This document shows, piece after piece, positions 365 through 16,594 of a stretch of DNA of 25,563 nt. Source of the stretch: a virus; IMG/VR virus record IMGVR_UViG_3300037353_000020, positions 1-25,563 of that record; one strand, written 5' to 3'. Positions within the stretch are counted from its first letter, which is position 1, and each line of letters begins with the position of its first letter. Position numbers and translations under genes: made by a program. The notes beneath the pieces are model-generated. The model was not told the DNA's origin, did no database searches, and saw only the letters and a list, made by a program, of their open reading frames with translations.

Positions 365-1546
365 TCAGAGAGCGCCGTAAATCGTGCGCGGCCGGCCGCC
401 CGTTTTGCCCGCCGCTTCGACGGTCGCCGTGATGGCGTCCCCGGCATTCATTACGGCGAGCTCCGCGACCGTACGTCGACGGTGCATGCGGATCCCGAGC
501 TGCTCGACCGTCAGCCCCGGATGCTCGCGCAACGTCGCGATGGCCAGCGCAACGTTATCCCGATCTTCCTGAGCGAGCTTCGCCGTCGCGAGTGCCCGGC
601 GACGATCGAGGAGCTTGTCGATTGCCGTGACGTGCGTCTTCAGACCCCACTTGACGTCGCCCTCGCCGTGAACGTCGAGGATCGAGAAGACAAGCGGCGC
701 GACGGTCTCGCCGTTCGTTCGCGCCTTCGCGTTGACGAATTCCTTCTCGTCCTCGCCGTCCTCGCCATTGAGGATCCATACGCAGTCGAGCGCCTCGAAG
801 ATCGCCGAGCTACCGCGAAGCTTCTCGTGCAGTCGCCCGGCGTCCTCCTTCCCTCGCTTGCGCACGTGATGGATCAGCAGCGCGCGACACGACGTTTCCT
901 CGGAGAGCGACGTCAGGAAATCGATCGCGTCACGGAATCCCGATTTGTTCTCGTCGAGTCCGGCCGCCGCTACACGCAGCGAGTCGATCAGCAGCAGATC
1001 TCGCCCCTGCATGATCGCGAACCACTTCGCGCGATCGTCCGGGTGCAGGCGGAGCGCGGGCAGACATGACACCGCGAGCCGTCCCGTGGCTTGAAGCGCA
1101 ACGAGGTCGATCCCTCTCGCCCGCGCCAGTCTTCGATACCGACGTCGCGTCAGGCGTGTTCCCTGCTCGAGGTCGACGTGCATCACCCTCCGCGGCATGG
1201 CACGGAGGCTCCCGAACACGGCCGTTCCTGACGCGAGCGCGAGAAGGAGATCTTGACAGAGCACCGACTTTCCCGAGAAACCGGAGCCGGCGATCATGTG
1301 CGGCGCGCCGCCGCCGTCCGTCAGAGCGAGCCGTTTGACGAGGTACGAGAGCGGGCCGTCCTCTTCGAGCATATCCACGAGCGCTGCACCCCCCGGCGGG
1401 GCGACGATCGCCTTCGGCGACCTCGACAGCCGCTTTGGCTTCGGGAGCGGCTCCGGCTCGACTGCGGCCATCTTCGCGTCGACGGCCGTCTTGGCGGCGG
1501 CCATGATCTCGTTCAGCCCTGTGGGCACTCGCCTCGGCGCGCTCAT
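365..1546 (-). CDS. RepA/DnaB-like RecA-fold ATPase (AAA_25 type), probable replicative helicase
   Basis: The product (393 aa from the ATG at 1546) has a RecA-like ATPase core: a Walker A GSGFSGKS at residues 87-94, an acidic strand VDLEQG with the probable catalytic glutamate near 127, a Walker B LLLIDSL at 184-190, and an LLIHHVRK sensor-type strand at about 223-230. The N-terminal 50 residues are Lys/Pro-rich and probably unstructured. The C-terminal part (about 325-393) resembles a winged helix, with LTVEQLGIRMHRRRTV as the likely HTH. This layout is that of plasmid/phage RepA-like hexameric helicases that act at a replication origin. The frame is open 48 codons further upstream, but those codons overlap the zinc-ribbon gene in another frame, so the start overlapping that gene's stop (ATGA at 1543-1546) is preferred. 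The repeat cluster just downstream could be its origin. A DNA-repair RecA-fold ATPase is a less likely alternative. Confidence 0.82.
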   Translation of the reverse strand: MSAPRRVPTGLNEIMAAAKTAVDAKMAAVEPEPLPKPKRLSRSPKAIVAPPGGAALVDMLEEDGPLSYLVKRLALTDGGGAPHMIAGSGFSGKSVLCQDLLLALASGTAVFGSLRAMPRRVMHVDLEQGTRLTRRRYRRLARARGIDLVALQATGRLAVSCLPALRLHPDDRAKWFAIMQGRDLLLIDSLRVAAAGLDENKSGFRDAIDFLTSLSEETSCRALLIHHVRKRGKEDAGRLHEKLRGSSAIFEALDCVWILNGEDGEDEKEFVNAKARTNGETVAPLVFSILDVHGEGDVKWGLKTHVTAIDKLLDRRRALATAKLAQEDRDNVALAIATLREHPGLTVEQLGIRMHRRRTVAELAVMNAGDAITATVEAAGKTGGRPRTIYGAL

Positions 1547-1761
1547 CGGGGCACCGCCACGACGATATGATGGCCGTACGTCGCGACGTTGCTGCACCAG
1601 ACCTGGATCTTGCCGCCCGGCTGCACGGTGCTGTTGCCCGTGCACCTCGCGGTGCCCGTGTCGGCCGGGCACCCTCCGCACTTGGGGCATCGCTCTCTTT
1701 GGGAATGGGTGAACTCTCGCCCCCCCGTGACGGGTGAGGGGAACGCGAACGCATTGGCCAT
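1543..1761 (-). CDS. Small zinc-ribbon-like protein
   Basis: The 72-aa product has cysteines at 25, 28, 31, 40 and 56 (CPKCGGC, then ARC and VWC), consistent with a zinc ribbon. The ATG at 1761 has GGAG six bases upstream, and the stop overlaps the ATPase start by 4 bp, so the pair is translationally coupled and may share a replication role (for example a primase-like or loader zinc finger); that role is only inferred. The frame stays open upstream, with a possible ATG at 1887 (114 aa) and GTG at 1950 (135 aa); the stretch before 1761 reads plausibly as protein but lacks a convincing ribosome binding site. Confidence 0.6.
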   Translation of the reverse strand: MANAFAFPSPVTGGREFTHSQRERCPKCGGCPADTGTARCTGNSTVQPGGKIQVWCSNVATYGHHIVVAVPR

Positions 1762-2054
1762 GGGTGACTCCGGATCGTTGAGGGTTGCCCGCGTGACGGC
1801 GGGGCTGGCGTCTGGTGGACGAACGAGGCGATCTCGGAGGTCGTCACACCCAACCTCGTACGCCCGCCAGGCGCCAGCGCGATCCATCAAGCAGAGCCGT
1901 GGCCATGCCGTCAAGTTCGCTCCGTTGACCTGAGCGCAATTCGGGATCACTGTAGCCGTGCGACCTCGTAGCGGGCGGAGTGTAGGGCCTGGTTCCCCCC
2001 ACTCCGCACTCCGCCCACTTCGAGGCCGCAGAGGCCGCAGAGAGAACGGGAGCC
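1762..2054. promoter_or_regulatory. Divergent intergenic region with inverted and direct repeats
   Basis: This gap separates the leftward replication pair from the rightward operon and must hold start signals for both. GGGCGGAGTG at 1973-1982 is matched by its exact reverse complement CACTCCGCCC at 2007-2016, and a second partial copy CACTCCGC lies at 2000-2007. A 9-bp unit GAGGCCGCA is repeated in tandem at 2022-2039. TTGACC at 1924-1929 is a -35-like hexamer for rightward transcription, but no clear -10 follows. Part of the region (to about 1950) could instead encode an N-terminal extension of the zinc-ribbon protein. Confidence 0.4.
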
Positions 2055-2282
2055 ATGAGCGACGACGACACGAAGATCCCCATGGGAGTTGTCTTGAAGC
2101 TGTACGCCTATCGCGATGCACGACGAGAGGCGCGGGCGACGTTCCTTGCGTGCGCGGAAGCGAGCCGCGTCGGGGATCGCAAGAAGGCGCTGTCGCTCGA
2201 GAAGCAGCGCGACGCGAAGAGCCTGGCGATCGGGCGCGCGCGCGTCGACCTCGACGAAGCGATCGGGGCTTGGACGCCATGA
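2055..2282 (+). CDS. Small hypothetical protein, charged and helical
   Basis: The 75-aa product is Ala/Arg/Asp/Lys-rich and probably mostly alpha-helical (heptad-like spacing from about residue 18 to 70). I recognise no family. The start is supported by GGGAG five bases upstream (gggagccATG). The stop overlaps the next ATG (ATGA at 2279-2282). It is the first gene of the long rightward operon, in an early/recombination-type position ahead of a zinc-finger protein and a resolvase. Confidence 0.65.
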   Translation: MSDDDTKIPMGVVLKLYAYRDARREARATFLACAEASRVGDRKKALSLEKQRDAKSLAIGRARVDLDEAIGAWTP

Positions 2283-2452
2283 ACCGAGGCGTTGCGGCGG
2301 CGGAGCGAGCGGCGAAGACTCCGATCGGTCGCTGCGGTCGCTGCGGGAAGCTTCGCCCGATCCATCGCGTCGAGATCAAGGGCGAGCTCGGAGGGCCGCG
2401 GCACCGCAAATACTGCGCGCTATGCCTTGGCTGGCATGAGACGAAGCGATGA
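2279..2452 (+). CDS. 57-aa zinc-finger protein
   Basis: The product has two CxxC knuckles, CGRC near residues 19-22 and CALC near residues 47-50, separated by a basic linker, which is a classic four-cysteine zinc ribbon. It begins at an ATG overlapping the previous stop by 4 bp and ends overlapping the next ATG by 4 bp, so it is coupled on both sides. A nucleic-acid-binding accessory role next to the RusA-family nuclease is likely but unproven. Longer in-frame versions starting upstream would overlap the previous gene completely and were rejected. Confidence 0.68.
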   Translation: MNRGVAAAERAAKTPIGRCGRCGKLRPIHRVEIKGELGGPRHRKYCALCLGWHETKR

Positions 2453-2910
2453 GCGGCGATCCCGTTCTACGCTTCATCGTGCCAGGCCCCCCCGTCCCCT
2501 GCGGAAGACCTCGCGTGGTCAACGGGCACGCGTTCACTCCACCGAAGACGGAGGCCTATGAGCAGGCGGCCGGGCTCTGCATCATGCAGGCGATGACGCG
2601 GTGCCGCTGGACACTGGGAACGCGCGGCCCCTTCCGTGTCGAGCTCGACGTCTATCGTGCCGCCGAGCGTGGCGACGTCGACAATTACGCGAAGTCGATT
2701 CTCGATGCGGCCACACGTGCTCGAGCATGGTCGGACGATGCGAGGGTGACGGAGCTCGAGGTAAGGCTGTTCGTGGATCGCGTGAAGCCGCGCGTTGAGG
2801 GGCGGATCCGCGTGGAGGTGGTGCCGGCGGAGGGTATCCGGTCGGGCCACGCAATCGCACTGGACTCGGGGGTCGAGGACTACTCGGCAGGCTGGAGACC
2901 CGATCGATGA
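2449..2910 (+). CDS. rusA: RusA-family crossover-junction (Holliday junction) endonuclease
   Basis: The 153-aa product begins with the typical RusA opening (FIVPGPPVPCGRPR, residues 9-22) and carries the signature GDVDNYAKSILDA at 75-87, followed by SDDARV at 95-100. The acidic residues D76, D78 and D96/D97 match the metal-binding aspartates of RusA, and K82 matches the conserved lysine. RusA proteins cut four-way DNA junctions as dimers; in phages they resolve recombination intermediates or branched DNA before packaging. E. coli RusA is about 120 aa, so this one has a C-terminal extension of about 30 residues with no recognisable motif. Start and stop both overlap neighbours by 4 bp. Confidence 0.9.
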   Translation: MSGDPVLRFIVPGPPVPCGRPRVVNGHAFTPPKTEAYEQAAGLCIMQAMTRCRWTLGTRGPFRVELDVYRAAERGDVDNYAKSILDAATRARAWSDDARVTELEVRLFVDRVKPRVEGRIRVEVVPAEGIRSGHAIALDSGVEDYSAGWRPDR

Positions 2911-3140: not shown

Positions 3141-4621
3141 GCGACCCGGCCGAGCCCGCACCCGTGCCCGTCGATCCGCTCGAGCGCTTCAGGCACGAGG
3201 GCGATTCGGGCCCCGGCGTCCTCGCGCACCTGGACGCGCTGGAGCGCGCACTTCAGTCGCGCGGCTTCCCGGCGATGTCGACATGGTGGCGAGAGTGCCT
3301 GACCGCGTTCTATTCCGGCCGGATCACGTGGCACCAGCTCGTCGTTCGCGTCGGACGTCGAGGCGGGAAAAGCTCGACGCTCTCCCGTATTGGCGTACTC
3401 GAGGCGCTCTTCGGCGATCACGTGAAGAGCGAAGGCGATCTCAACGTCGTCGCGATCGTGAGCGTGAGCCGTCCCGAAGCCATGCGCCGGCTCCGTCTGA
3501 TCCGAGCGATCCTTCGCGCGCTCGGGATCGAGCCGAAGTCGATCGAGCAGGGCGCGGGGCTCGAGCTCGAAGGGCGCGGCGTCGCGTTTATTGTGTTCGC
3601 TGCCTCGATTGCGGGCGTCTCCGGCTTCTCGTGCATCTGCGCGATCTGCGACGAGGTCTCGAAATGGAAGGATCTCGACACTGGCGTAAACCCGGCAACG
3701 GAGGTGCTCGCGTCGCTCCGTCCGACGCTCGCGGGCCAGGCGAACGCACGGATCTTCTTGTCGAGCTCGGCGACGGGCACGAAGGACGCGCACGCGATTG
3801 CCTTCGATCTCGGTGACACGGACTTTCAGATGGTGGCCGGCGCCGTCACTTGGGTTGCCCGGCCATCGCTCACCGAGGCGGAGTGTCGCGCGTTCGAGCC
3901 GGACGAAGAGGTGTTCTGGCGCGAGTATGGGTGCATCCCCTTCGATGGCTCGACTGCGGCAATCTTCACGACGCCGATCCTCAAGTCGATCGCGCGCCCG
4001 GGACCGCTCCTTCTGCCGCCCGCGCCCGGCACCGCATACTATGCCGCACAGGATCCGGCGAACCGCGGGGGCAACGGCTGGACGCTCGTGATCGCATTCC
4101 AGCACGTGATCGGCGACGGGCTCACCAAGGTCACAGTCGCCTATCACTGGCAGTGGCGCGCAAAGAAGGGCGTGCCGCTCGACAGCGACGCAACGCTAGG
4201 GGAGATTGCGAAGGTGCTCGAGCAGCATGGGATCCGCGAGCTGTGGAGCGACCAATGGAGCTTCGACGCGCTCGCCGCTCTCGCCCTCCGTCACGGGATC
4301 GAGCTTCGCCTCGACGCCGCGACGCAGGCGAGCAATGTCGAGGACTACGACGCGGTTCGGAGGCGCGCGATCGACAAGACGCTCGAGCTCCCCGACGATC
4401 CGGTGGTGCGCTCCGATCTGCTCGGCGTAAGCAAGTGGATCGGCAAGGGGGGCGCCTTCTCGATTGAGCTCGAGAAGAGCGGCGGCCGACATTGCGACTT
4501 TGCGCCGGCCGTCAAGCTTGCCGTCAAACGAGCCGCTGAGGGCGGCGTCGTGGCCCCATGGATCGGACCGGAGCCGGCGATTCCAGCAAGCGAAATGAGG
4601 GAGCTATGGGCGCCGATCTGA
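3137..4621 (+). CDS. terL: Terminase large subunit (packaging ATPase and nuclease)
   Basis: The 494-aa product has the TerL layout. The ATPase domain shows a Walker A VGRRGGKSS at 72-80 (with the extra arginines usual in TerL), a Walker B ICAICDEVSKW with D172-E173, and the coupling motif FLSSSATG at 207-214. The RNase H-like nuclease domain shows AAQDPANRG with D306, LWSDQWS with D372, and CDFAPAVKLA with D454, a suitable metal-binding triad. It cuts and pumps genomic DNA through the portal. The longest frame begins at 3056, but that part overlaps the HTH gene; the TTG at 3137, overlapping the upstream stop (TTGA) with GGGGA about 10 bases ahead, is the better start. Confidence 0.93.
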   Translation: MSDPAEPAPVPVDPLERFRHEGDSGPGVLAHLDALERALQSRGFPAMSTWWRECLTAFYSGRITWHQLVVRVGRRGGKSSTLSRIGVLEALFGDHVKSEGDLNVVAIVSVSRPEAMRRLRLIRAILRALGIEPKSIEQGAGLELEGRGVAFIVFAASIAGVSGFSCICAICDEVSKWKDLDTGVNPATEVLASLRPTLAGQANARIFLSSSATGTKDAHAIAFDLGDTDFQMVAGAVTWVARPSLTEAECRAFEPDEEVFWREYGCIPFDGSTAAIFTTPILKSIARPGPLLLPPAPGTAYYAAQDPANRGGNGWTLVIAFQHVIGDGLTKVTVAYHWQWRAKKGVPLDSDATLGEIAKVLEQHGIRELWSDQWSFDALAALALRHGIELRLDAATQASNVEDYDAVRRRAIDKTLELPDDPVVRSDLLGVSKWIGKGGAFSIELEKSGGRHCDFAPAVKLAVKRAAEGGVVAPWIGPEPAIPASEMRELWAPI

Positions 4622-6897: not shown

Positions 6898-8859
6898 TTG
6901 GGTCTTGCACGACGGATAGAGCCCGAAGAGAGCCCGGTCGCGCAGGACTCGCGCTGGTGGCTCAGGGAGCGCGAGGACGATCGCGCGTCGATTCTCGAGT
7001 CGACGGCCGAAGAGATCTGGAAGCAGCTCGCGAACATTCGCCAGGAAATGTTCCGCTACGGCAACCTCTACGAAAACATGCCAATGGCGTGGATGTCGTC
7101 GAGGGTGCTGCGCCGTCGCTCCGTCTCCGCCGCGCTCGCCCCCAAGCTCTCGCTGAACGTGTGCAAGAGCGTCGTCGACACCTACGGCGCGCTCATCACG
7201 AAGGACAAGCCCAAGGTCTCCTTCGTCACCGACCGGGGCGACTGGTGCCTACAGCGCAAGGCGAAGCTGCTCGAGCGCTTCACGCACGGCATCATGGTGG
7301 CGGCCGACCTCTACGGACTCGCGCCGCAGATCGTCGCCGATTCGGCCAAGTTTCCCTTCGGCGTGGTGAAGATCTACGCCGAGGAGAACGCGACCGGAAA
7401 GAAGAAGGGGAAGGACGCGCAGCCGAAGATCCGGATCGATCGCGTACTGCCGTGGGAGCTACTGGTCGATGAGTTCGACGCGATCTATGGCAACCCGCGG
7501 AGCTGGTACCACCTTCGCTACGTCGATCGACTCGCGCTCATGGCGGAGTACCCGAAGCTCGTGAACGACATCAAGACGGCGAGCGGCGTCGGTTTCTCGG
7601 ATGCCTCGGAAGGCGCCGTGTCCGTGGAGGGCTCCGACATCGTCGTTGTGATCGAGGCGTGGCGGCTCGCGCGCTACGAGGGAGGGACGGACGGGCGGCA
7701 CACGGTCATCTGCGGCGAGGTCGTGCTCGTCGACGAGGTCTATTCGCACGCGTTCTCGCCCTTCGTAGTGCTGCATCGTCAGACGCCGACGACTGGAATC
7801 TATGGGCTCTCTCTTTTGAAGGAGCTCGCGCCGATTCAGCTCGCGATCAACCGGATCCTTCGCGACATCCAGCGCGCGTACCAGCTGATCGTCGGTCACT
7901 GGATGGTCGAGAACGGCAGCTCGGTCAACACGGGCTCGATCGACGATCGTATCGGCTCGATCCTTCGCTACAGCGGCACGCCTCCGACCTACAACGCGCC
8001 GCAACCCGTCAACGGGAGCGCGCAGGAATGGCTCGAGTACCTGGTGTCGTCGGCCTATGCGCTGATCGGCATTTCCCAGATGGCTTCGCAGAGCGAGAAG
8101 CCGGCCGGGCTCAACTCGGGCAAAGCGATCAACGCCTACGCCGACGTGCAGAGCCAGCGCTTCGAGCCCAGCTACAACCTTTACCAGAGCTGGTTTCTGC
8201 AGTGCGCGCGCCAGATCCTTGCGGTCGCGCGCGACATCTCCGATGCGCACCCCGGCTTTGAGGTGAAGGCGATCGGCAAGGCATCGATGTCGATCATCAA
8301 GAGCTCGGACGCGCTCCTTGATGACAGCGAGTTCGAGCTCCAGCTTTTCGCGACAAACGCCTTCGCCGACGAGCCCGCCGCGAGACTTCAGCAGGTGCAG
8401 GACATGCTCGCCGCGGGCCTGCTCGATCCGTCGAGCGCGAAGCGGCTCCTCGATATGCCCGACCTCGACACGGAAGCGGACAATGAGAACGCCTCCTACA
8501 ATCTCGCAATGAACATGATCGAGCGCATGCTCGACAAGGGCGAGTTTGTGGCGCCGGAGCCGTTCATGCAGATCGGCGATCTCCCCGACGGCGGCCCCGG
8601 CGCGCGCTCGCTCTGTCAGCGCGAGTATCTCAAGGCGAAGCTCGGCGGCGCTCCCGAGGATCGGCTCAAGCTCCTTCGCACGTGGATGGTGCGCTGCAAC
8701 GCGCTCCTTCGGCCTCCGCCGCCCCCCGTCGATCCGCGCCTCGCCGCGCAGCCCGGTCAGGCCGGCAACGCCGCCACGGGCGGCGCTCCCCTTCTCGCTC
8801 CTCCCCCTCCGCCGCAAACCCCTTCGCCCCCTTCACCCGTGCAACAGGAAGCCGCATGA
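6898..8859 (+). CDS. Portal protein (head-to-tail connector)
   Basis: The 653-aa product fits a podovirus-type portal in length, position (after terminase, before scaffold and capsid) and content. It has an N-terminal helical segment with NLYENMPMAWMSSR (about 58-71), a LSLNVCKSVVDTYGALITKDKP segment near 83-104, a long core with the APIQLAINRILRDIQRAY helix (about 313-330, typical of the portal stem region), and a Pro-rich disordered C-terminus from about 600. Portals form the dodecameric ring through which DNA is packaged and ejected. The start is a TTG directly after the preceding stop; no strong ribosome site is seen, so coupling is probable. The stop overlaps the scaffold ATG. Confidence 0.88.
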   Translation: MGLARRIEPEESPVAQDSRWWLREREDDRASILESTAEEIWKQLANIRQEMFRYGNLYENMPMAWMSSRVLRRRSVSAALAPKLSLNVCKSVVDTYGALITKDKPKVSFVTDRGDWCLQRKAKLLERFTHGIMVAADLYGLAPQIVADSAKFPFGVVKIYAEENATGKKKGKDAQPKIRIDRVLPWELLVDEFDAIYGNPRSWYHLRYVDRLALMAEYPKLVNDIKTASGVGFSDASEGAVSVEGSDIVVVIEAWRLARYEGGTDGRHTVICGEVVLVDEVYSHAFSPFVVLHRQTPTTGIYGLSLLKELAPIQLAINRILRDIQRAYQLIVGHWMVENGSSVNTGSIDDRIGSILRYSGTPPTYNAPQPVNGSAQEWLEYLVSSAYALIGISQMASQSEKPAGLNSGKAINAYADVQSQRFEPSYNLYQSWFLQCARQILAVARDISDAHPGFEVKAIGKASMSIIKSSDALLDDSEFELQLFATNAFADEPAARLQQVQDMLAAGLLDPSSAKRLLDMPDLDTEADNENASYNLAMNMIERMLDKGEFVAPEPFMQIGDLPDGGPGARSLCQREYLKAKLGGAPEDRLKLLRTWMVRCNALLRPPPPPVDPRLAAQPGQAGNAATGGAPLLAPPPPPQTPSPPSPVQQEAA

Positions 8860-9944: not shown

Positions 9945-11183
9945 ATGGGCGTTTTCTATTTTGACCAGACCAGCGCATCGGCGATCACGAAGGAGCGGTA
10001 CACGAAGGACTACGTCGAAATGCTGGTGTTCAAGTCACCCGCATTCGCGATGATGCCGAAGAAGACGGACTACGGGGGCCAGTCCTTCATCGGCGCGACC
10101 GGCTACGCGCCGCCCGCATCGACGTCGCCGAGCGATGCGACCGCGTTCACGACCGGAGGTCCGAGCCAGTACAGCCAGTGGAATTGCCCATGGGTGCAGC
10201 TATTCGGGTCCGCGAACGTCACCGGCTTCGCGATCGACGCGACGAAGGGCGACGAGAACGCGATCGTAGACGTGATCGTTCGCGAGTCAGACAACGCCTA
10301 CGAGTCGCTTGGGCAGGATCTAGGATACGGGATCTGGAGCAACGGCGGCGGCGCGCGTGGCAAGCTGTCTGCGGGGACTGTCGCGGGAACGGGGCCATTC
10401 ACGCTCCTGAACCCCAACGACATCGTGAAGTTCATGGCGGGGATGATCGTCAACGCCGCCACGACGGACGGCACGAGCGGAGCGGTGGAGACCGGCTCGG
10501 CCATCATCCAATCCGTCGACGTCAACGCGGGCACGTTCACGACGACCGCGAACTTGTCGACGGGGATCCCCACCGTGTCGAACACTGACTTCCTGTTCTC
10601 TCAGGGATCGTTCGGCGCGACGATGAAGGGCGTCCCGGCCTGGATCCCCGACGTCAATCACAGGCCGACGGGCGGCGACAGCTTCAACGGCGTTAACCGT
10701 TTCAACACCGACCCCGCACGGCTCGCAGGCATCTACTACAACGGCGGCGGCGGACCGAAGGAGGAGTCGCTCTTTCAGGCGATGATCCTCTCGAACCGGC
10801 TTGGCGGAAAGCCGGACAGGTGCTTCTTGAACCCGGTCGACTATTCCGACGTGGTCAAAGGGCTTCAGTCGCGCTCGATCTACGCGATCACGGGGACCGC
10901 GTTCGGAAGCCCCACGATCGGATTCGACGGCGTCAAGGTGGTTACGCCGGGCGGCACGCTGGAGATCTACGAGGATCCCTTTGTGCCGAGCGGCGACGGC
11001 TACCTCCTGCAAATGAACACGTGGCTCATTCCGAGCATGGGCCCGGTCCCCAAGGTGCTTGACGAGGTCGACGGGATCACCTGGCTTCGCCAGGCCGGTC
11101 TCGACGCATATCAGATGCGCATCGGGGCGCGCTTCACCACCTACTGCAAGTCGCCGGGGTCCAACGCCGTCGTGACGTTCTAG
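9945..11183 (+). CDS. Major capsid protein
   Basis: The 412-aa product is Gly/Ala/Thr-rich with no coiled coils, directly after the scaffold gene, and has features of HK97-fold capsid proteins of podo/siphoviruses: an N-terminal arm (about 1-40), a conserved-looking FDQTSASAITKERYTKDYVE opening, long beta regions, a central IYYNGGGGPKEESLFQAMILSNRLGG segment (about 264-290) that looks like the spine helix, and a C-terminal strand ending in VVTF. It has a GGAG ribosome site and is separated from the upstream gene by 99 bp. It would be the most abundant virion protein. The HK97 fold is inferred from context and pattern, not from a specific motif. Confidence 0.87.
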   Translation: MGVFYFDQTSASAITKERYTKDYVEMLVFKSPAFAMMPKKTDYGGQSFIGATGYAPPASTSPSDATAFTTGGPSQYSQWNCPWVQLFGSANVTGFAIDATKGDENAIVDVIVRESDNAYESLGQDLGYGIWSNGGGARGKLSAGTVAGTGPFTLLNPNDIVKFMAGMIVNAATTDGTSGAVETGSAIIQSVDVNAGTFTTTANLSTGIPTVSNTDFLFSQGSFGATMKGVPAWIPDVNHRPTGGDSFNGVNRFNTDPARLAGIYYNGGGGPKEESLFQAMILSNRLGGKPDRCFLNPVDYSDVVKGLQSRSIYAITGTAFGSPTIGFDGVKVVTPGGTLEIYEDPFVPSGDGYLLQMNTWLIPSMGPVPKVLDEVDGITWLRQAGLDAYQMRIGARFTTYCKSPGSNAVVTF

Positions 11184-11858: not shown

Positions 11859-12539
11859 ATGTACGCCGTCACGCTCGCGTCGCTCATTCAGAGCGTGAGG
11901 CAGCGCTCCAATCTCGAGGGCGCGACGGCGTTCATTCCCGACACCGAGATCATCGACTACGTCAACAAGGGCCTTTCCAAGTGGTACGACCTGGTGGTCG
12001 GGTCCACATGGGGAGGCCAGTACTACCGCACCGCGTGGCCCATCACGACCGCGAGCGGCGTCGCGAGCTACGGGCTGCCGCAGAATATGAAGGCCGTCAT
12101 CTCGGTCGACGTGCTCTTGAGTGGCGGCATCCAGTGCAACGCGTACGCGTACCAGGAAGAGCAGCGCAATTGGTTCAAGCTCGCGCAGCTCTTCGGCTGG
12201 ACCTACAACCAGCCCGTCTACTACCAGCTCCAGGGCGCCAATATCGTCTTTGCGCCCGTGCCGCAGGGAGCGTTTGCCGCGACGGTCAACTATGTGCCGG
12301 TCGCCCCGATCCTCTCCAACTCGACGGACACGCTCGACTCGATCGACGGATGGGAGGAGTTCATCATCCTCGACGCCGCGATCAAGTGCGCGCTCAAGGA
12401 GGCGGAGCTCGACGTGATCGGAGAGCTCCGCTCGAGCAAGACGGAGGAGGAGGCGCGCATCCGGGCGAACGCTCCGCAGCGCGACATGAATCAGACGGAA
12501 GCGGTGCACGAAACCGGGCGCTGGGGTTGGGAGGACTGA
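11859..12539 (+). CDS. Head-tail connector/adaptor-like protein
   Basis: The 226-aa product opens with LASLIQSVRQRSNLEG and then IPDTEIIDYVNKGLSKWYDLVV (about 28-49), a helical opening characteristic of podovirus head-completion/adaptor proteins (P22 gp4 / T7 gp11-like role), followed by an aromatic beta region (YYRTAWPITTASGVASYGLP, NYVPVAPIL) and a C-terminal helix (DAAIKCALKEAE). Its position between capsid and nozzle genes agrees. Such proteins form the ring linking portal to tail. The assignment is by pattern and position and is not certain. Confidence 0.7.
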   Translation: MYAVTLASLIQSVRQRSNLEGATAFIPDTEIIDYVNKGLSKWYDLVVGSTWGGQYYRTAWPITTASGVASYGLPQNMKAVISVDVLLSGGIQCNAYAYQEEQRNWFKLAQLFGWTYNQPVYYQLQGANIVFAPVPQGAFAATVNYVPVAPILSNSTDTLDSIDGWEEFIILDAAIKCALKEAELDVIGELRSSKTEEEARIRANAPQRDMNQTEAVHETGRWGWED

Positions 12540-12543
12540 CCCC

Positions 12544-12981
12544 GTGACACGCACCATCAATGCCCCCGTCGCTCTCGGCGCGCCACTGCCAGGGCGAATC
12601 CAGAATGCCCCCTTCGGCTCAACCAACGTCGCGGCTGGCGCACGCGCCGTACCGCGTCCCATCATCGCACAGCCGGGCCCGGCGTTCGCACTCGCGCAGA
12701 CGGACGATCGCCAGGTAAACGAGCTCCAGCAGAACGCCCGCAGGGCCGGGGCGCAGGCTCGCGCCAATCCCATGGCGAACGGCAGGCTGCTCGAGGGGAT
12801 CGTCCTCGTGAACGGAACCACTACGATCAGCCACGGACTCGGCCGGCCGATCCGCGGCATGATCATGTGCGCGATGAGCGCGGAGGCCCTGTGGGCCTTT
12901 TCCAAGGGCCTGACGCCGGCACAGAACTTCGTCATCTCCGCGAACAGCGGAACGACGGTCGACATCTGGGTCTACGCGTGA
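12544..12981 (+). CDS. Small virion protein with glycine-motif C-terminal domain
   Basis: The 145-aa product starts at a GTG with a GGGAGGAC ribosome site upstream. The N-terminal half is Pro/Ala/Asn-rich and flexible. The C-terminal part (about 84-145) is a compact beta domain with ISHGLGRPIRGMIM and the ending GTTVDIWVYA; the HGLGR-type loop followed by a beta-strand pair is common in small structural proteins of diverse phages, often tail- or fibre-associated. I recognise the pattern but cannot name a function. It ends 2 bp from the convergent lipoprotein gene. Confidence 0.62.
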   Translation: MTRTINAPVALGAPLPGRIQNAPFGSTNVAAGARAVPRPIIAQPGPAFALAQTDDRQVNELQQNARRAGAQARANPMANGRLLEGIVLVNGTTTISHGLGRPIRGMIMCAMSAEALWAFSKGLTPAQNFVISANSGTTVDIWVYA

Positions 12982-12983
12982 AT

Positions 12984-13277
12984 CTACGGCGTGCAGCAGA
13001 GCCGCATCGTCTCGCCGACGATACTGGCGACGACGCATGCCGATGTCGTGCCCGTCCAGTCGAAGGGTCCGTTTGTGCAGGTCCACGCCGCGCGCGCGAG
13101 CCCGTCGCCGGGGACAAGATAGTTTGCTCCCGCGTCCGCACATTCGGGATCGAGCGCGGGCGTCGGGGCGCACGCCTCAGCAAGATCCTCGCGGGCAGTG
13201 GCCTTCGATTCGGGCCCGGGGTCGGCGATACACGAGCAGAGCAAGGCGGCGGTGAGCAGCGATCCGATGGTTCCCAT
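12984..13277 (-). CDS. Cysteine-rich lipoprotein on the opposite strand, candidate superinfection-exclusion moron
   Basis: The 97-aa product is the only complete leftward gene within the rightward block and has a very strong ribosome site (GGAGGAG, about 7 bases before ATG). It begins with a short signal peptide (MGTIGSLLTAALLCSC). The best lipobox is L-C-S-C with lipidation at C16; the +2 residue is Ile, which by the E. coli rule would favour the outer membrane. After cleavage six cysteines remain (36, 46, 67, 81, 94, 95), enough for three disulfides. The C-terminal part (TWT-like C67, later C81 and a final CC near residue 94) recalls small secreted domains of Myxococcota. Phage lipoproteins (T5 Llp, phi80 Cor) block receptors against superinfection; this role here is inference. 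An Rz1-type spanin is less likely because there is no partner i-spanin nearby. Confidence 0.72.
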   Translation of the reverse strand: MGTIGSLLTAALLCSCIADPGPESKATAREDLAEACAPTPALDPECADAGANYLVPGDGLARAAWTCTNGPFDWTGTTSACVVASIVGETMRLCCTP

Positions 13278-13330
13278 TTTGTAACTCCTCCAGTCACCAA
13301 GTCTGGACTTGCGCGCGCTGGAGTCAACTG
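13278..13330. promoter_or_regulatory. Divergent gap between lipoprotein and nozzle genes
   Basis: The 53-bp gap carries ribosome sites for both divergent genes: GGAGGAG leftward and GGAG rightward before 13331. CAAGTC-TG-GACTTG at 13298-13311 is a short inverted repeat, possibly an operator or part of a promoter. On the minus strand TTGACT at 13327-13322 is a -35-like hexamer for the lipoprotein gene, but no good -10 follows. The presence of an independent leftward promoter is likely from the gene layout rather than from these motifs. Confidence 0.35.
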
Positions 13331-16300
13331 ATGGGCCAAACGACGGTGCTTCAGCTCCCTTTTGCTGGCGGGCTCGATCAGAAGGCCGCGAAATATTACC
13401 TCGATCCGGAATCGAAGCTCGCCACCATCACCGACGGCAACTTCGTCAAGACGGGCGCGGTCGACAAGCGGCAGGGGATCTCGCATCTCACCTCGGTGTC
13501 GGCGACTGGCGGCAAGCTGTCGTCGTGGAGCAAGTCGGAGCTTACGGTCGCGACTCCGCAGGGGCTCTACTCCTATTCGGGAGCGCTGAATGCGCTCGTT
13601 GGCGCTGGCCCACTGCCCCCATGCCGCGCGATTCGGCGCCCCCTCCTGGCGGCCTCGCCCGCACTCGGAACGACATTTCCGAGCACCGCGGCTCAGAGTC
13701 CGAACCTCTGCGACATCCCCCTCGGCACGTCAACGCTCCGCCTCGCGGTCTATCAGGGAGCGCTCACGTCAACGGGCAAGTCGACGATCTATGCGAGCGT
13801 CTCCGACGCGACCACCGGCGAGTTGGTCCTCCCTCCGAGCCTGCTCTACGTCGGTGCCGGCGCCCCCGGACGACTCACGGGCGCGGTGGTCGTCCAGGCG
13901 TTCTACCAGCCGACCGCGACGTCCGGGCAGCAGGTCACGATCGCCTATGCGGATATGGCTCAGCTCGCGCTCTATGCGCGCAACTACAACCCGGCCACGA
14001 ACGTGATCAGCGCGCAGACGACGATCCTCGCGGCAGGCGGATTCACGATACAAGCGCTCGATCTCGTCCCCTACACGGGCGATCCGAGCGGCGGCTCGCT
14101 GCTCCTCTACTCGGACAATGGATCGCGTGTCGTCTACAAATACCTCTCGTCGGCGTTCGGGACGATCACGAGCGCTGTGATCGACACGGCGCCCGGCGGC
14201 CAATTCGTCGCCGGGGACATGTACGCGCTGGGGGTCTACGGCGATTCCGTTTGGTTCATCTACGCGTTCGCCAACTCAACAACGACGTGGCACGCGAAGT
14301 GGACGAACTATTCCGCGGATCACCTGTTCCTGTTCGTTGGCAGCAGCAGCATTGCGAATTTCGCGGGGGGGAACGCCTTCAAGCTGATCCCTCCCGTGGG
14401 TATGGGCTCGAAGCTCGCCTTCACCGGATTCGTTCAGGATACGGCGCTCACGGCGCCGAGCGTTCCCGGTCCAGGCACGACGAGCATCCACTCGTTCAGC
14501 GGCCAGTGGCAGACGCTCTCCGCCGCGACCACTGGCGCCGTCGACCAGGGGAATTGGCCGCTGGGCCTGAGCCCGGTGTCGCGAGGATTCGTGACGGGCG
14601 GCACGCTCTACCAGCCCGCAGAGCTAGCGCTGTGCGGCGCCAACGCGATCGGGACGGCGCTCGCTGGATCCGGCGTGATCTCGATCGAATCCCAGCAAGG
14701 CACGCTCTTCCTACTGCAGCTCCAGTCCAATACATCGCTGCTCTCCCGTATGCTCCCCGTCGCCACCATCGCCCCGCGACAAAAGCTGATCGGCGCGCAG
14801 CCCATCTTTCCGTTGACGAGCACCTTCCCCGAGCCGAGCACTCCGCTCCCCAGCGGCCAGCCCGGAGCTACGAGGCAAGCGGTCGCGCTTCGCGTGGCCG
14901 GTGTCGACACGGCGGCAGAGTCGGGCACGATCGCCTCAACGTGGGCGAACGACTTCTACTTCGACACGGGCTCGCAGGCCCTCCTCTATCAGGCGAACGA
15001 GCTGGGCCAGGAGCTTCACCTATCGAGCGCGACCCCGTTCGTGTTCGACGGTGGCCTCGCGCTCGAGGACTCGTTCGCCTATTACCCTGAGTTTTCGTAC
15101 GCCTCGCAGAGCGGATCCGGGTCGACGCTCACGGGCACGTATACCTATGCAGTGGTCTACACGTACGTCGACGCGTCCGGCCTCCTGCATCGGAGCGTGC
15201 CGGCGTTCACGAACGCGGTCACGCTGAGCGGCGCACAGAATCCGGTGTGCAACATCCTCTCTCTCTCGATGACGTGGCGCGATCTGGCGGTCACGGGCCA
15301 GTCATTCCCCACGGTCCCGCAAGGCGCCGTCTACGCGGAGATCTACCGGACGCTCTCGACGCCCGCGACGCCCGTCTTCTACTTCGTCGATCGCGTTTCC
15401 GTCTCGAACACCAACGCGTTCCCCTGCGTACCCTACATCGCATACGTGGACACGACGCCGGACAGCGCGATCTCGGTCGCGTCGCAGCTCTACACAACGG
15501 GCGGCGTGCTCGACAATCCGTGCCCGCCCGCGCTCGCGATGCAGTGCGTCCACAAGGGGCGCCTCTGGGCGATCGACGAGACCTTGCGGACGATCTGGTT
15601 CACACAAACCTTCTCGTCGGGGCTCGCTCCCACGTGGAACGAGCTTATGACGATCCAGCTTCCCGACGGCGGGGACATCACTGCGATCGCCGAGCTCGAC
15701 GACAAGCTCATCGTCTTCAAGGCTGGATCCATTTGGGTGGTCTACGGCGGGGACGGACTCTCGATCACGGGGACCGGGTCGGACATCACGAACCCGCAGA
15801 GGATCGCGAGCGACGTCGGCGCCGTTGATTGGCGGAGCGTCGTGCTGATGCCCGAGGGGCTCATGTTTCTCGCGGCGAACGGCATCTATCTGCTCGATCG
15901 CTCGCTCGCGGTCACGTGGATCGGGAAGGAGGTAACCGACTCGCTTGCGCAGTTCCCGACCGTCGTGGGCGCCACGCTCATCCCGACGGCAACGCAAGTG
16001 CGGTTTACGTGCGTGGGGGCCGGGGGCTCGGCCGCGCTGGTTTTCGACTATGAGCTGAAGTGGTGGACGGTGCACACTTACCCGCGGCTTTCGGCGCCGC
16101 TGGCAAGCTCGAGCCTCGCGCAAAGCGGTGCGTACTCGCTCCTCTCCACGGACGGGCAGCTCTGGCAAGAAGGCTCGACGTTCTTCGATCAGGACAGCAC
16201 GGGAACGCCGCACTTCGTTCCGACAGTCATCACAACCGCGGCACTCAAGCTTCAGGGCGTCCAGGGCTATCAGCGGTGCCGCCGCGCGCTTCTGAGCTTC

Positions 16301-16594
16301 GCGGAGCAGGACGATTGCGGGCTCTCGATTGGGCTCGCGGTCAATTACCAGCCGACGATCGTCCAGACCGGGATCTACTCCGCCGCCCAGGTCGACGTGC
16401 TGCCCCCCGGCGTCCCTGTGGATATGCACCTCGCGGGGGCCTACAATAAGGGCATGGCCGTGCAGTTCACTTTCTCCGACTCGCAAGGACCTGGCGCGAT
16501 CACCGGTCAGGGCGCGCGCTTCGCGAGCTATGCCGTCGAGCTCGACGCGATCGGCGGTCGCTATCGCCAGGTGCCGCCGCAAGGGAGGTCGTAG
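13331..16594 (+). CDS. Large tail nozzle/stabilisation-type protein
   Basis: The 1087-aa product opens with LQLPFAGGLDQKAAKYYLDP and NFVKTGAVDKRQGI (about 7-50), the usual opening of podovirus tail nozzle/stabilisation proteins (P22 gp10, T7 gp12), and is beta-rich throughout. About residues 785-870 hold LDDKLIVFKAGSIWVVYGGDG and then GLMFLAANGIYLLDR, the repeated propeller-blade motifs of this group. It is far longer than P22 gp10 (about 470) or T7 gp12 (about 790); the extra length lies in the Ser/Thr-rich part before residue 600. It would close the tail tube below the connector. Its stop overlaps the next GTG by one base. Confidence 0.8.
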   Translation: MGQTTVLQLPFAGGLDQKAAKYYLDPESKLATITDGNFVKTGAVDKRQGISHLTSVSATGGKLSSWSKSELTVATPQGLYSYSGALNALVGAGPLPPCRAIRRPLLAASPALGTTFPSTAAQSPNLCDIPLGTSTLRLAVYQGALTSTGKSTIYASVSDATTGELVLPPSLLYVGAGAPGRLTGAVVVQAFYQPTATSGQQVTIAYADMAQLALYARNYNPATNVISAQTTILAAGGFTIQALDLVPYTGDPSGGSLLLYSDNGSRVVYKYLSSAFGTITSAVIDTAPGGQFVAGDMYALGVYGDSVWFIYAFANSTTTWHAKWTNYSADHLFLFVGSSSIANFAGGNAFKLIPPVGMGSKLAFTGFVQDTALTAPSVPGPGTTSIHSFSGQWQTLSAATTGAVDQGNWPLGLSPVSRGFVTGGTLYQPAELALCGANAIGTALAGSGVISIESQQGTLFLLQLQSNTSLLSRMLPVATIAPRQKLIGAQPIFPLTSTFPEPSTPLPSGQPGATRQAVALRVAGVDTAAESGTIASTWANDFYFDTGSQALLYQANELGQELHLSSATPFVFDGGLALEDSFAYYPEFSYASQSGSGSTLTGTYTYAVVYTYVDASGLLHRSVPAFTNAVTLSGAQNPVCNILSLSMTWRDLAVTGQSFPTVPQGAVYAEIYRTLSTPATPVFYFVDRVSVSNTNAFPCVPYIAYVDTTPDSAISVASQLYTTGGVLDNPCPPALAMQCVHKGRLWAIDETLRTIWFTQTFSSGLAPTWNELMTIQLPDGGDITAIAELDDKLIVFKAGSIWVVYGGDGLSITGTGSDITNPQRIASDVGAVDWRSVVLMPEGLMFLAANGIYLLDRSLAVTWIGKEVTDSLAQFPTVVGATLIPTATQVRFTCVGAGGSAALVFDYELKWWTVHTYPRLSAPLASSSLAQSGAYSLLSTDGQLWQEGSTFFDQDSTGTPHFVPTVITTAALKLQGVQGYQRCRRALLSFAEQDDCGLSIGLAVNYQPTIVQTGIYSAAQVDVLPPGVPVDMHLAGAYNKGMAVQFTFSDSQGPGAITGQGARFASYAVELDAIGGRYRQVPPQGRS

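What the first reader, a model, noticed from the sequence alone, without database searches (positions are those of the whole stretch)
12984..13330. Leftward lipoprotein gene inside the rightward virion operon
A complete gene with an excellent ribosome site, signal peptide with lipobox, and six further cysteines is oriented against more than 20 virion genes and has its own divergent control gap. Expression from its own promoter, independent of late genes, is the mark of a moron: candidate functions are superinfection exclusion at the cell surface or altered host envelope. The cysteine pattern also gives a possible host clue (Myxococcota-like).
Basis: partly seen in the sequence, partly recalled or inferred. 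Interest (0 to 1): 0.65.

Follow-up and report, generated by a model that had tools for sequence, protein, structure and literature searches.

The report
Backwards lipoprotein gene in phage operon
An uncultivated bacterial virus carries, inside the long row of genes for its particle, one small gene pointing the other way that probably makes a cysteine-rich protein anchored in the host's cell envelope; five related viruses carry different genes of the same kind in the same stretch, which suggests a swap-in spot for genes that change the infected cell.

Summary
A 97-codon leftward ORF (12984-13277) starts 8 nt after GGAGGA and encodes a hydrophobic N-terminus, a permissive lipobox (L-C-S-C16) and six further cysteines. 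Weak points: no Lys/Arg in the n-region, modest coding score, no promoter-like site, and no homolog in any library searched, including 3.7 Mb of related phage loci.

The window is an SU10-like podovirus fragment. In relatives the tail-adaptor-to-internal-virion-protein interval is variable: of 121 distinct junctions 45 are closed and 76 carry inserts, mostly rightward fibre-like genes. Five other phages carry leftward cysteine-rich lipoprotein genes there (L170, L031, L050, L108, L160), with no detected homology to the window protein; the nearest relative, L248, has a leftward HNH endonuclease ORF. About 0.65 such ORFs are expected by chance across those junctions. A tree needs at least five gains or losses. 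Relatives, including L170 and L108, carry tyrosine integrases.

Best explanation: a moron-type gene for an envelope lipoprotein in a recurrent cargo slot, most likely acting in lysogens, superinfection exclusion being the leading but untested role. The Myxococcota host clue could not be tested.

The parts
12984..13277 (-). 97-aa cysteine-rich probable lipoprotein gene
   Evidence: SD, codon-based call, lipobox
13233..13277 (-). codons 1-15, proposed signal peptide MGTIGSLLTAALLCS
   Evidence: no Lys/Arg in n-region; permissive lipobox LCS-C
13230..13232 (-). codon of Cys16, proposed lipid-modified residue
   Evidence: inferred from the lipobox
13286..13291 (-). Shine-Dalgarno GGAGGA of the leftward gene, 8 nt from its ATG
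13278..13330 (.). 53-bp divergent gap between the leftward gene and the internal virion protein gene; no promoter-like site found
12544..12981 (+). 145-aa gene (g12544), tail-side neighbour; its stop lies 2 bp from the leftward gene's stop
   Evidence: 31% identity to L248 homolog
13331..16594 (+). 1087-aa internal virion protein / tail-side structural gene (ivp)
   Evidence: phrog_511 E=1.4e-14
11859..12539 (+). SU10-like adaptor protein gene, left border of the variable interval
   Evidence: PF24175 E=1.1e-14
9945..11183 (+). probable major capsid protein gene
   Evidence: weak SU10_MCP match (below cut-off); relatives with the same gene order
6898..8859 (+). portal protein gene
   Evidence: phrog_156; nearest relatives at 37-45%

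Best explanation
The leftward ORF is a real accessory (moron-type) gene of a probably temperate SU10-like podovirus. It sits in a recurrent cargo interval between the tail-adaptor gene and the large internal virion protein gene. It encodes a small exported lipoprotein whose six mature-domain cysteines probably form disulfides in the periplasm or at the cell surface. Because it is transcribed against the late operon, it must use its own promoter and could be made when late genes are off, i.e. in the lysogen. There it most likely alters an envelope component used by phages, excluding superinfecting relatives. Shown: the ORF, its ribosome site, its position and orientation, and other lipoprotein genes in the same interval of relatives. 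Inferred: lipidation, disulfides, lysogenic expression, exclusion function.
For: ORF, SD and lipobox. Gene caller picks it. Closed junctions in nearest sisters L167, L171, L172 and in 45 of 121 distinct junctions. Leftward Cys-rich lipoprotein genes in the same interval in L170, L031, L050 and L108 and L160; 0.65 expected by chance, Poisson P(5 or more)=5e-4. In the first 158 loci, the leftward genes called inside virion modules were lipoproteins in 2 of 11 (3 of 11 with an alternative start, window excluded) against 2 of 314 small rightward ones, Fisher P=0.006 (0.0003). At least five gains or losses on the tree. Integrases in L170, L108, L172, L151, L251, L175, L192 records. Precedents for small phage lipoproteins as exclusion factors: T5 Llp (PMC9586334), Rtp45 (PMC12685063), TP-J34 Ltp (PMC3952083). 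Genes antisense to lytic genes are described as characteristic of moron loci (PMC7067206).
Against: No homolog of the 97-aa protein anywhere searched. No Lys/Arg before the hydrophobic stretch. Modest codon score. No promoter found. No integrase family was searched in the window itself beyond the proteins scanned, and none was found in the L248 record. Exclusion is analogy only; AlphaFold gave no usable model (pLDDT 43.5).
Confidence: 0.52

Rival explanations
1. Same moron lipoprotein, but its job is lysogenic conversion of the host envelope (surface masking, adhesion, protease inhibition or cell-cell interaction) rather than exclusion of phages.
For: Cargo in this interval varies in sequence while keeping export and cysteine richness, which fits any envelope trait. 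Lambda Bor, an outer-membrane lipoprotein involved in serum resistance, is cited among known prophage genes (reference list seen).
Against: No homology to any lipoprotein of known function.
Confidence: 0.25
2. A chance ORF in a non-coding insert; the lipobox is a coincidence of GC-rich sequence.
For: Codon score at the 1.4 percentile of true windows and reached by 34 of 715 wrong-frame windows; no charged n-region; no homolog.
Against: 0.004 such ORFs expected in the gap; strong SD; GC3 phase correct; independent gene call; the same kind of gene in the same interval in five other phages.
Confidence: 0.12
3. A lysis gene: an outer-membrane spanin (Rz1-like) lipoprotein.
For: Small lipoprotein in a phage that presumably infects a Gram-negative host (inference).
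Against: No inner-membrane spanin partner nearby; six cysteines; orientation against the late operon; absent from relatives with otherwise conserved order.
Confidence: 0.04

Closest known systems
T5 Llp (and Cor of T1-like phages)
   Same: Small phage lipoprotein with a disulfide acting in the periplasm of a Gram-negative host (PMC9586334)
   Different: No sequence match in the phage collection; virulent phage; receptor of the window phage unknown; six mature-domain cysteines besides the lipid-modified one
Rtp45 superinfection-exclusion lipoprotein
   Same: About 6-kDa lipoprotein with a disulfide that blocks a receptor from the periplasmic side (PMC12685063)
   Different: No homology found; context and host unknown
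Ltp of Streptococcus phage TP-J34
   Same: Prophage-expressed lipoprotein, transcribed apart from the lytic genes, argued to be a moron (PMC3952083)
   Different: Gram-positive host, lies in the lysogeny module, no homology found
Leftward lipoprotein genes of L170, L031, L050, L108, L160
   Same: Same adaptor-ivp interval, leftward, exported, Cys-rich
   Different: Not detectably homologous to the window protein: pairwise phmmer for L031, L050, L108, tblastn of the window protein against all loci

Membership tests
Phage moron | Extra gene absent from relatives at an otherwise conserved junction | tested here: met
   Closed adaptor-g12544-ivp junctions in L167, L171, L172 and 45 of 121 distinct junctions
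Phage moron | Own promoter and terminator, transcribed in the lysogen | tested here: inconclusive
   Opposite orientation requires its own promoter, but no sigma-70-like promoter or intrinsic terminator was found; the host's promoter type is unknown; no RNA data
Phage moron | Temperate phage | tested here: inconclusive
   Integrases in several relatives including L170 and L108; none seen in the window fragment
Bacterial lipoprotein (type II signal) | Hydrophobic stretch followed by lipobox Cys | tested here: met
   SLLTAALLCS-C16 fits the permissive pattern used
Bacterial lipoprotein (type II signal) | Positively charged n-region | tested here: not met
   MGTIGS has no Lys/Arg, so membership is called probable, not proven
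Superinfection-exclusion lipoprotein | Blocks adsorption or injection of related phages | not testable with these tools
   needs expression and phage challenge
Superinfection-exclusion lipoprotein | Sequence relation to known exclusion or defence families | tested here: not met
   No hit in Pfam, PHROGs, NCBIfam, PADLOC or the phage collection
Myxococcota lipoprotein | Homologs in Myxococcota genomes | tested here: inconclusive
   Pattern scan of genome contigs found none, but it reaches close relatives only; no Myxococcota genome could be made a search centre
Outer-membrane spanin | Adjacent inner-membrane spanin partner | tested here: not met
   Neighbours are a tail-side gene and ivp

The most novel reading that the evidence does not exclude
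The adaptor-to-ivp interval of temperate SU10-like podoviruses is a dedicated cassette slot in which non-homologous, leftward, cysteine-rich envelope lipoproteins replace one another, a hotspot of phage-versus-phage exclusion genes that could be mined by position instead of by sequence.
Probability: 0.3. Interest if true: 0.65.

Novelty: new member of a known kind. Interest (0 to 1): 0.48.

Why it matters
Moron genes are hard to recognise from DNA alone, and small lipoproteins without homologs are usually left as hypothetical. A position and orientation that recur across an uncultivated phage group give a way to find candidate envelope-modifying genes by synteny, and a small set of six to test.

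Tried and rejected
Homolog searches of the 97-aa protein in IMG/VR, GTDB contigs, phages, plasmids, PDB, Pfam, PHROGs, NCBIfam and PADLOC gave nothing useful. AlphaFold without an alignment was unusable, so no fold search was run. Promoter and terminator scan empty. Inverted repeats upstream of the six genes: no consistent signal; five are well within shuffles and L050 reaches 18 of 300. RNA folds of the gap are not significant. L031 versus L027 gives no selection signal, since the lipoprotein lies in an identical block. The leftward ORF in L141 was dismissed as antisense to a fibre-like gene with 2 Cys. Clade-specific MCP and ivp alignments were too divergent to scan with. An o-spanin role was rejected for lack of a partner.

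Full report
What is there. On the minus strand of 12984-13277 lies a 97-codon ORF, with GGAGGA 8 nt upstream of its ATG. The protein is MGTIGSLLTAALLCSCIADPGPESKATAREDLAEACAPTPALDPECADAGANYLVPGDGLARAAWTCTNGPFDWTGTTSACVVASIVGETMRLCCTP. Cys16 follows L-C-S, a permissive lipobox, and six cysteines follow it. The n-region has no Lys or Arg, which weakens the signal-peptide call. The stop lies 2 bp from the stop of the rightward gene 12544-12981; 53 bp separate its start from the start of the rightward 1087-aa gene at 13331.

Is it a gene? A codon-usage gene caller trained on the phage's own genes selects it. Overlapping ORFs on either strand have the wrong GC phase. Its codon score is modest: 0.14 per codon, near the bottom of true-gene windows and reached by 34 of 715 wrong-frame windows. 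As a chance ORF it is unlikely: leftward lipobox ORFs of at least 60 aa occur at a rate that predicts 0.004 in a gap of this size. No homolog was found in any library or in 3.7 Mb of related phage DNA.

The phage. The window is an IMG/VR record with RusA, large terminase and portal, an SU10-type adaptor (PF24175, E=1.1e-14) and a weak SU10-type capsid match, and an internal virion protein (phrog_511). Its structural proteins have almost no match among 50,697 cultivated-phage records. IMG/VR relatives were collected with capsid, internal-virion-protein and portal alignments; the nearest with the full region is L248 (portal 45%, capsid 45%, adaptor 48%, internal virion protein 37%). The tool notes that records very near the window may be left out.

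The interval. Across 121 distinct relatives with both flanking genes, the adaptor-to-ivp interval is closed (under 600 bp) in 45 and enlarged in 76, mostly by rightward genes; of those scanned, L046 carries a tail-collar domain and most match nothing. Leftward genes here are rare, and those found encode exported proteins apart from the HNH ORF in L248: L170 15916-16344 (142 aa, MRRFAILAVFVLGC..., 11 Cys), L031 10523-10801 (92 aa, 12 Cys), L108 6219-6617 (132 aa, MKTMIPISLLLALAVIGC...), L050 4167-4658 (alternative start gives a lipobox) plus a second exported-looking Cys-rich gene at 3816-4163, and L160 6208-6537 (MRHFIFIILFFVGC..., found by the lipobox scan and not by the gene caller). In the window, L108 and L160 the gene is immediately upstream of ivp; in L170, L031 and L050 it follows the adaptor directly. 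L248 has a leftward HNH endonuclease ORF at the same g12544-ivp boundary (PF13392, E=7.6e-8).

Is the recurrence more than chance? At the antisense control rate, 0.65 leftward lipobox ORFs with 7 or more Cys are expected over all junctions, against 5 seen without the window (Poisson P=5e-4). In the first 158 loci, leftward genes called inside the virion module were lipoproteins in 2 of 11 (3 of 11 with the L050 alternative start) against 2 of 314 small rightward genes (Fisher P=0.006 and 0.0003). Pairwise comparison of the window, L031, L050 and L108 proteins gives scores too low for homology. On a tree of adaptor plus ivp, starred branches force at least five gains or losses. The controls were chosen after the pattern was seen, so these P values are guides.

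Lifestyle. Tyrosine integrases occur in the L170, L108, L172, L151, L251, L175 and L192 records and not in several other long ones; the L170 match is below the family cut-off, but its 569-aa frame shows the HxxR, H and Tyr motifs by eye. The group therefore probably includes temperate phages; the window is a fragment and shows none.

How it most likely works. Orientation against the late operon means the gene cannot be made from the late transcript and needs its own promoter, which fits expression in the lysogen; this is inferred, since no promoter was recognised. The protein would be exported, lipidated on Cys16 and disulfide-bonded. Small phage lipoproteins with a disulfide are known to block receptors from the periplasm (T5 Llp, PMC9586334; Rtp45, PMC12685063), and prophage lipoprotein Ltp blocks DNA injection (PMC3952083). 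Superinfection exclusion is therefore the leading function, with other envelope conversion as the main rival. Membership in an exclusion family is not claimed.

Host.

Noticed in passing
L248:16712-17293 (-) and L248:14165-14638 (-): Leftward HNH_3 endonuclease ORF at the same g12544-ivp boundary as the window gene, and a second leftward ORF with a helix-turn-helix tail that looks HNH-like right after the capsid gene; homing endonucleases may open this interval.
   Followed up: partly
L013:3707-4171 (-), L081:9969-10400 (+), L059:9236-9625 (+): Lipoproteins with an HExxH-type motif (PhageMetallopep above cut-off in L013, weaker in L081, motif HEFVH by eye in L059); L059's lies directly before ivp. 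A second kind of lipoprotein in this phage group.
   Followed up: partly
L074:6439-7032 (+): Rightward lipoprotein with a trypsin-like start (GTGFVI...NAHVC, by eye) near virion genes.
   Followed up: no
L031:12659-13399 and 13407-13988 (+): Glycosyltransferase-like and methyltransferase-like genes (by eye; no Pfam hit for the first) next to the fibre-like gene in the same variable interval.
   Followed up: no
L031:7992-11200 against L027: Two contigs that differ by 8-29% per gene upstream are identical over about 3.2 kb spanning capsid to the lipoprotein gene: recent exchange or assembly artefact.
   Followed up: partly
L138:1369-1893 and 1913-2827 (-): Two leftward collagen-like (GPQG repeat) genes between capsid and adaptor.
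   Followed up: no
window 365-1690 (-): Leftward AAA_25 ATPase gene at the left end (PF13481, E=1.7e-21); the family was not found in 11 related records.
   Followed up: partly
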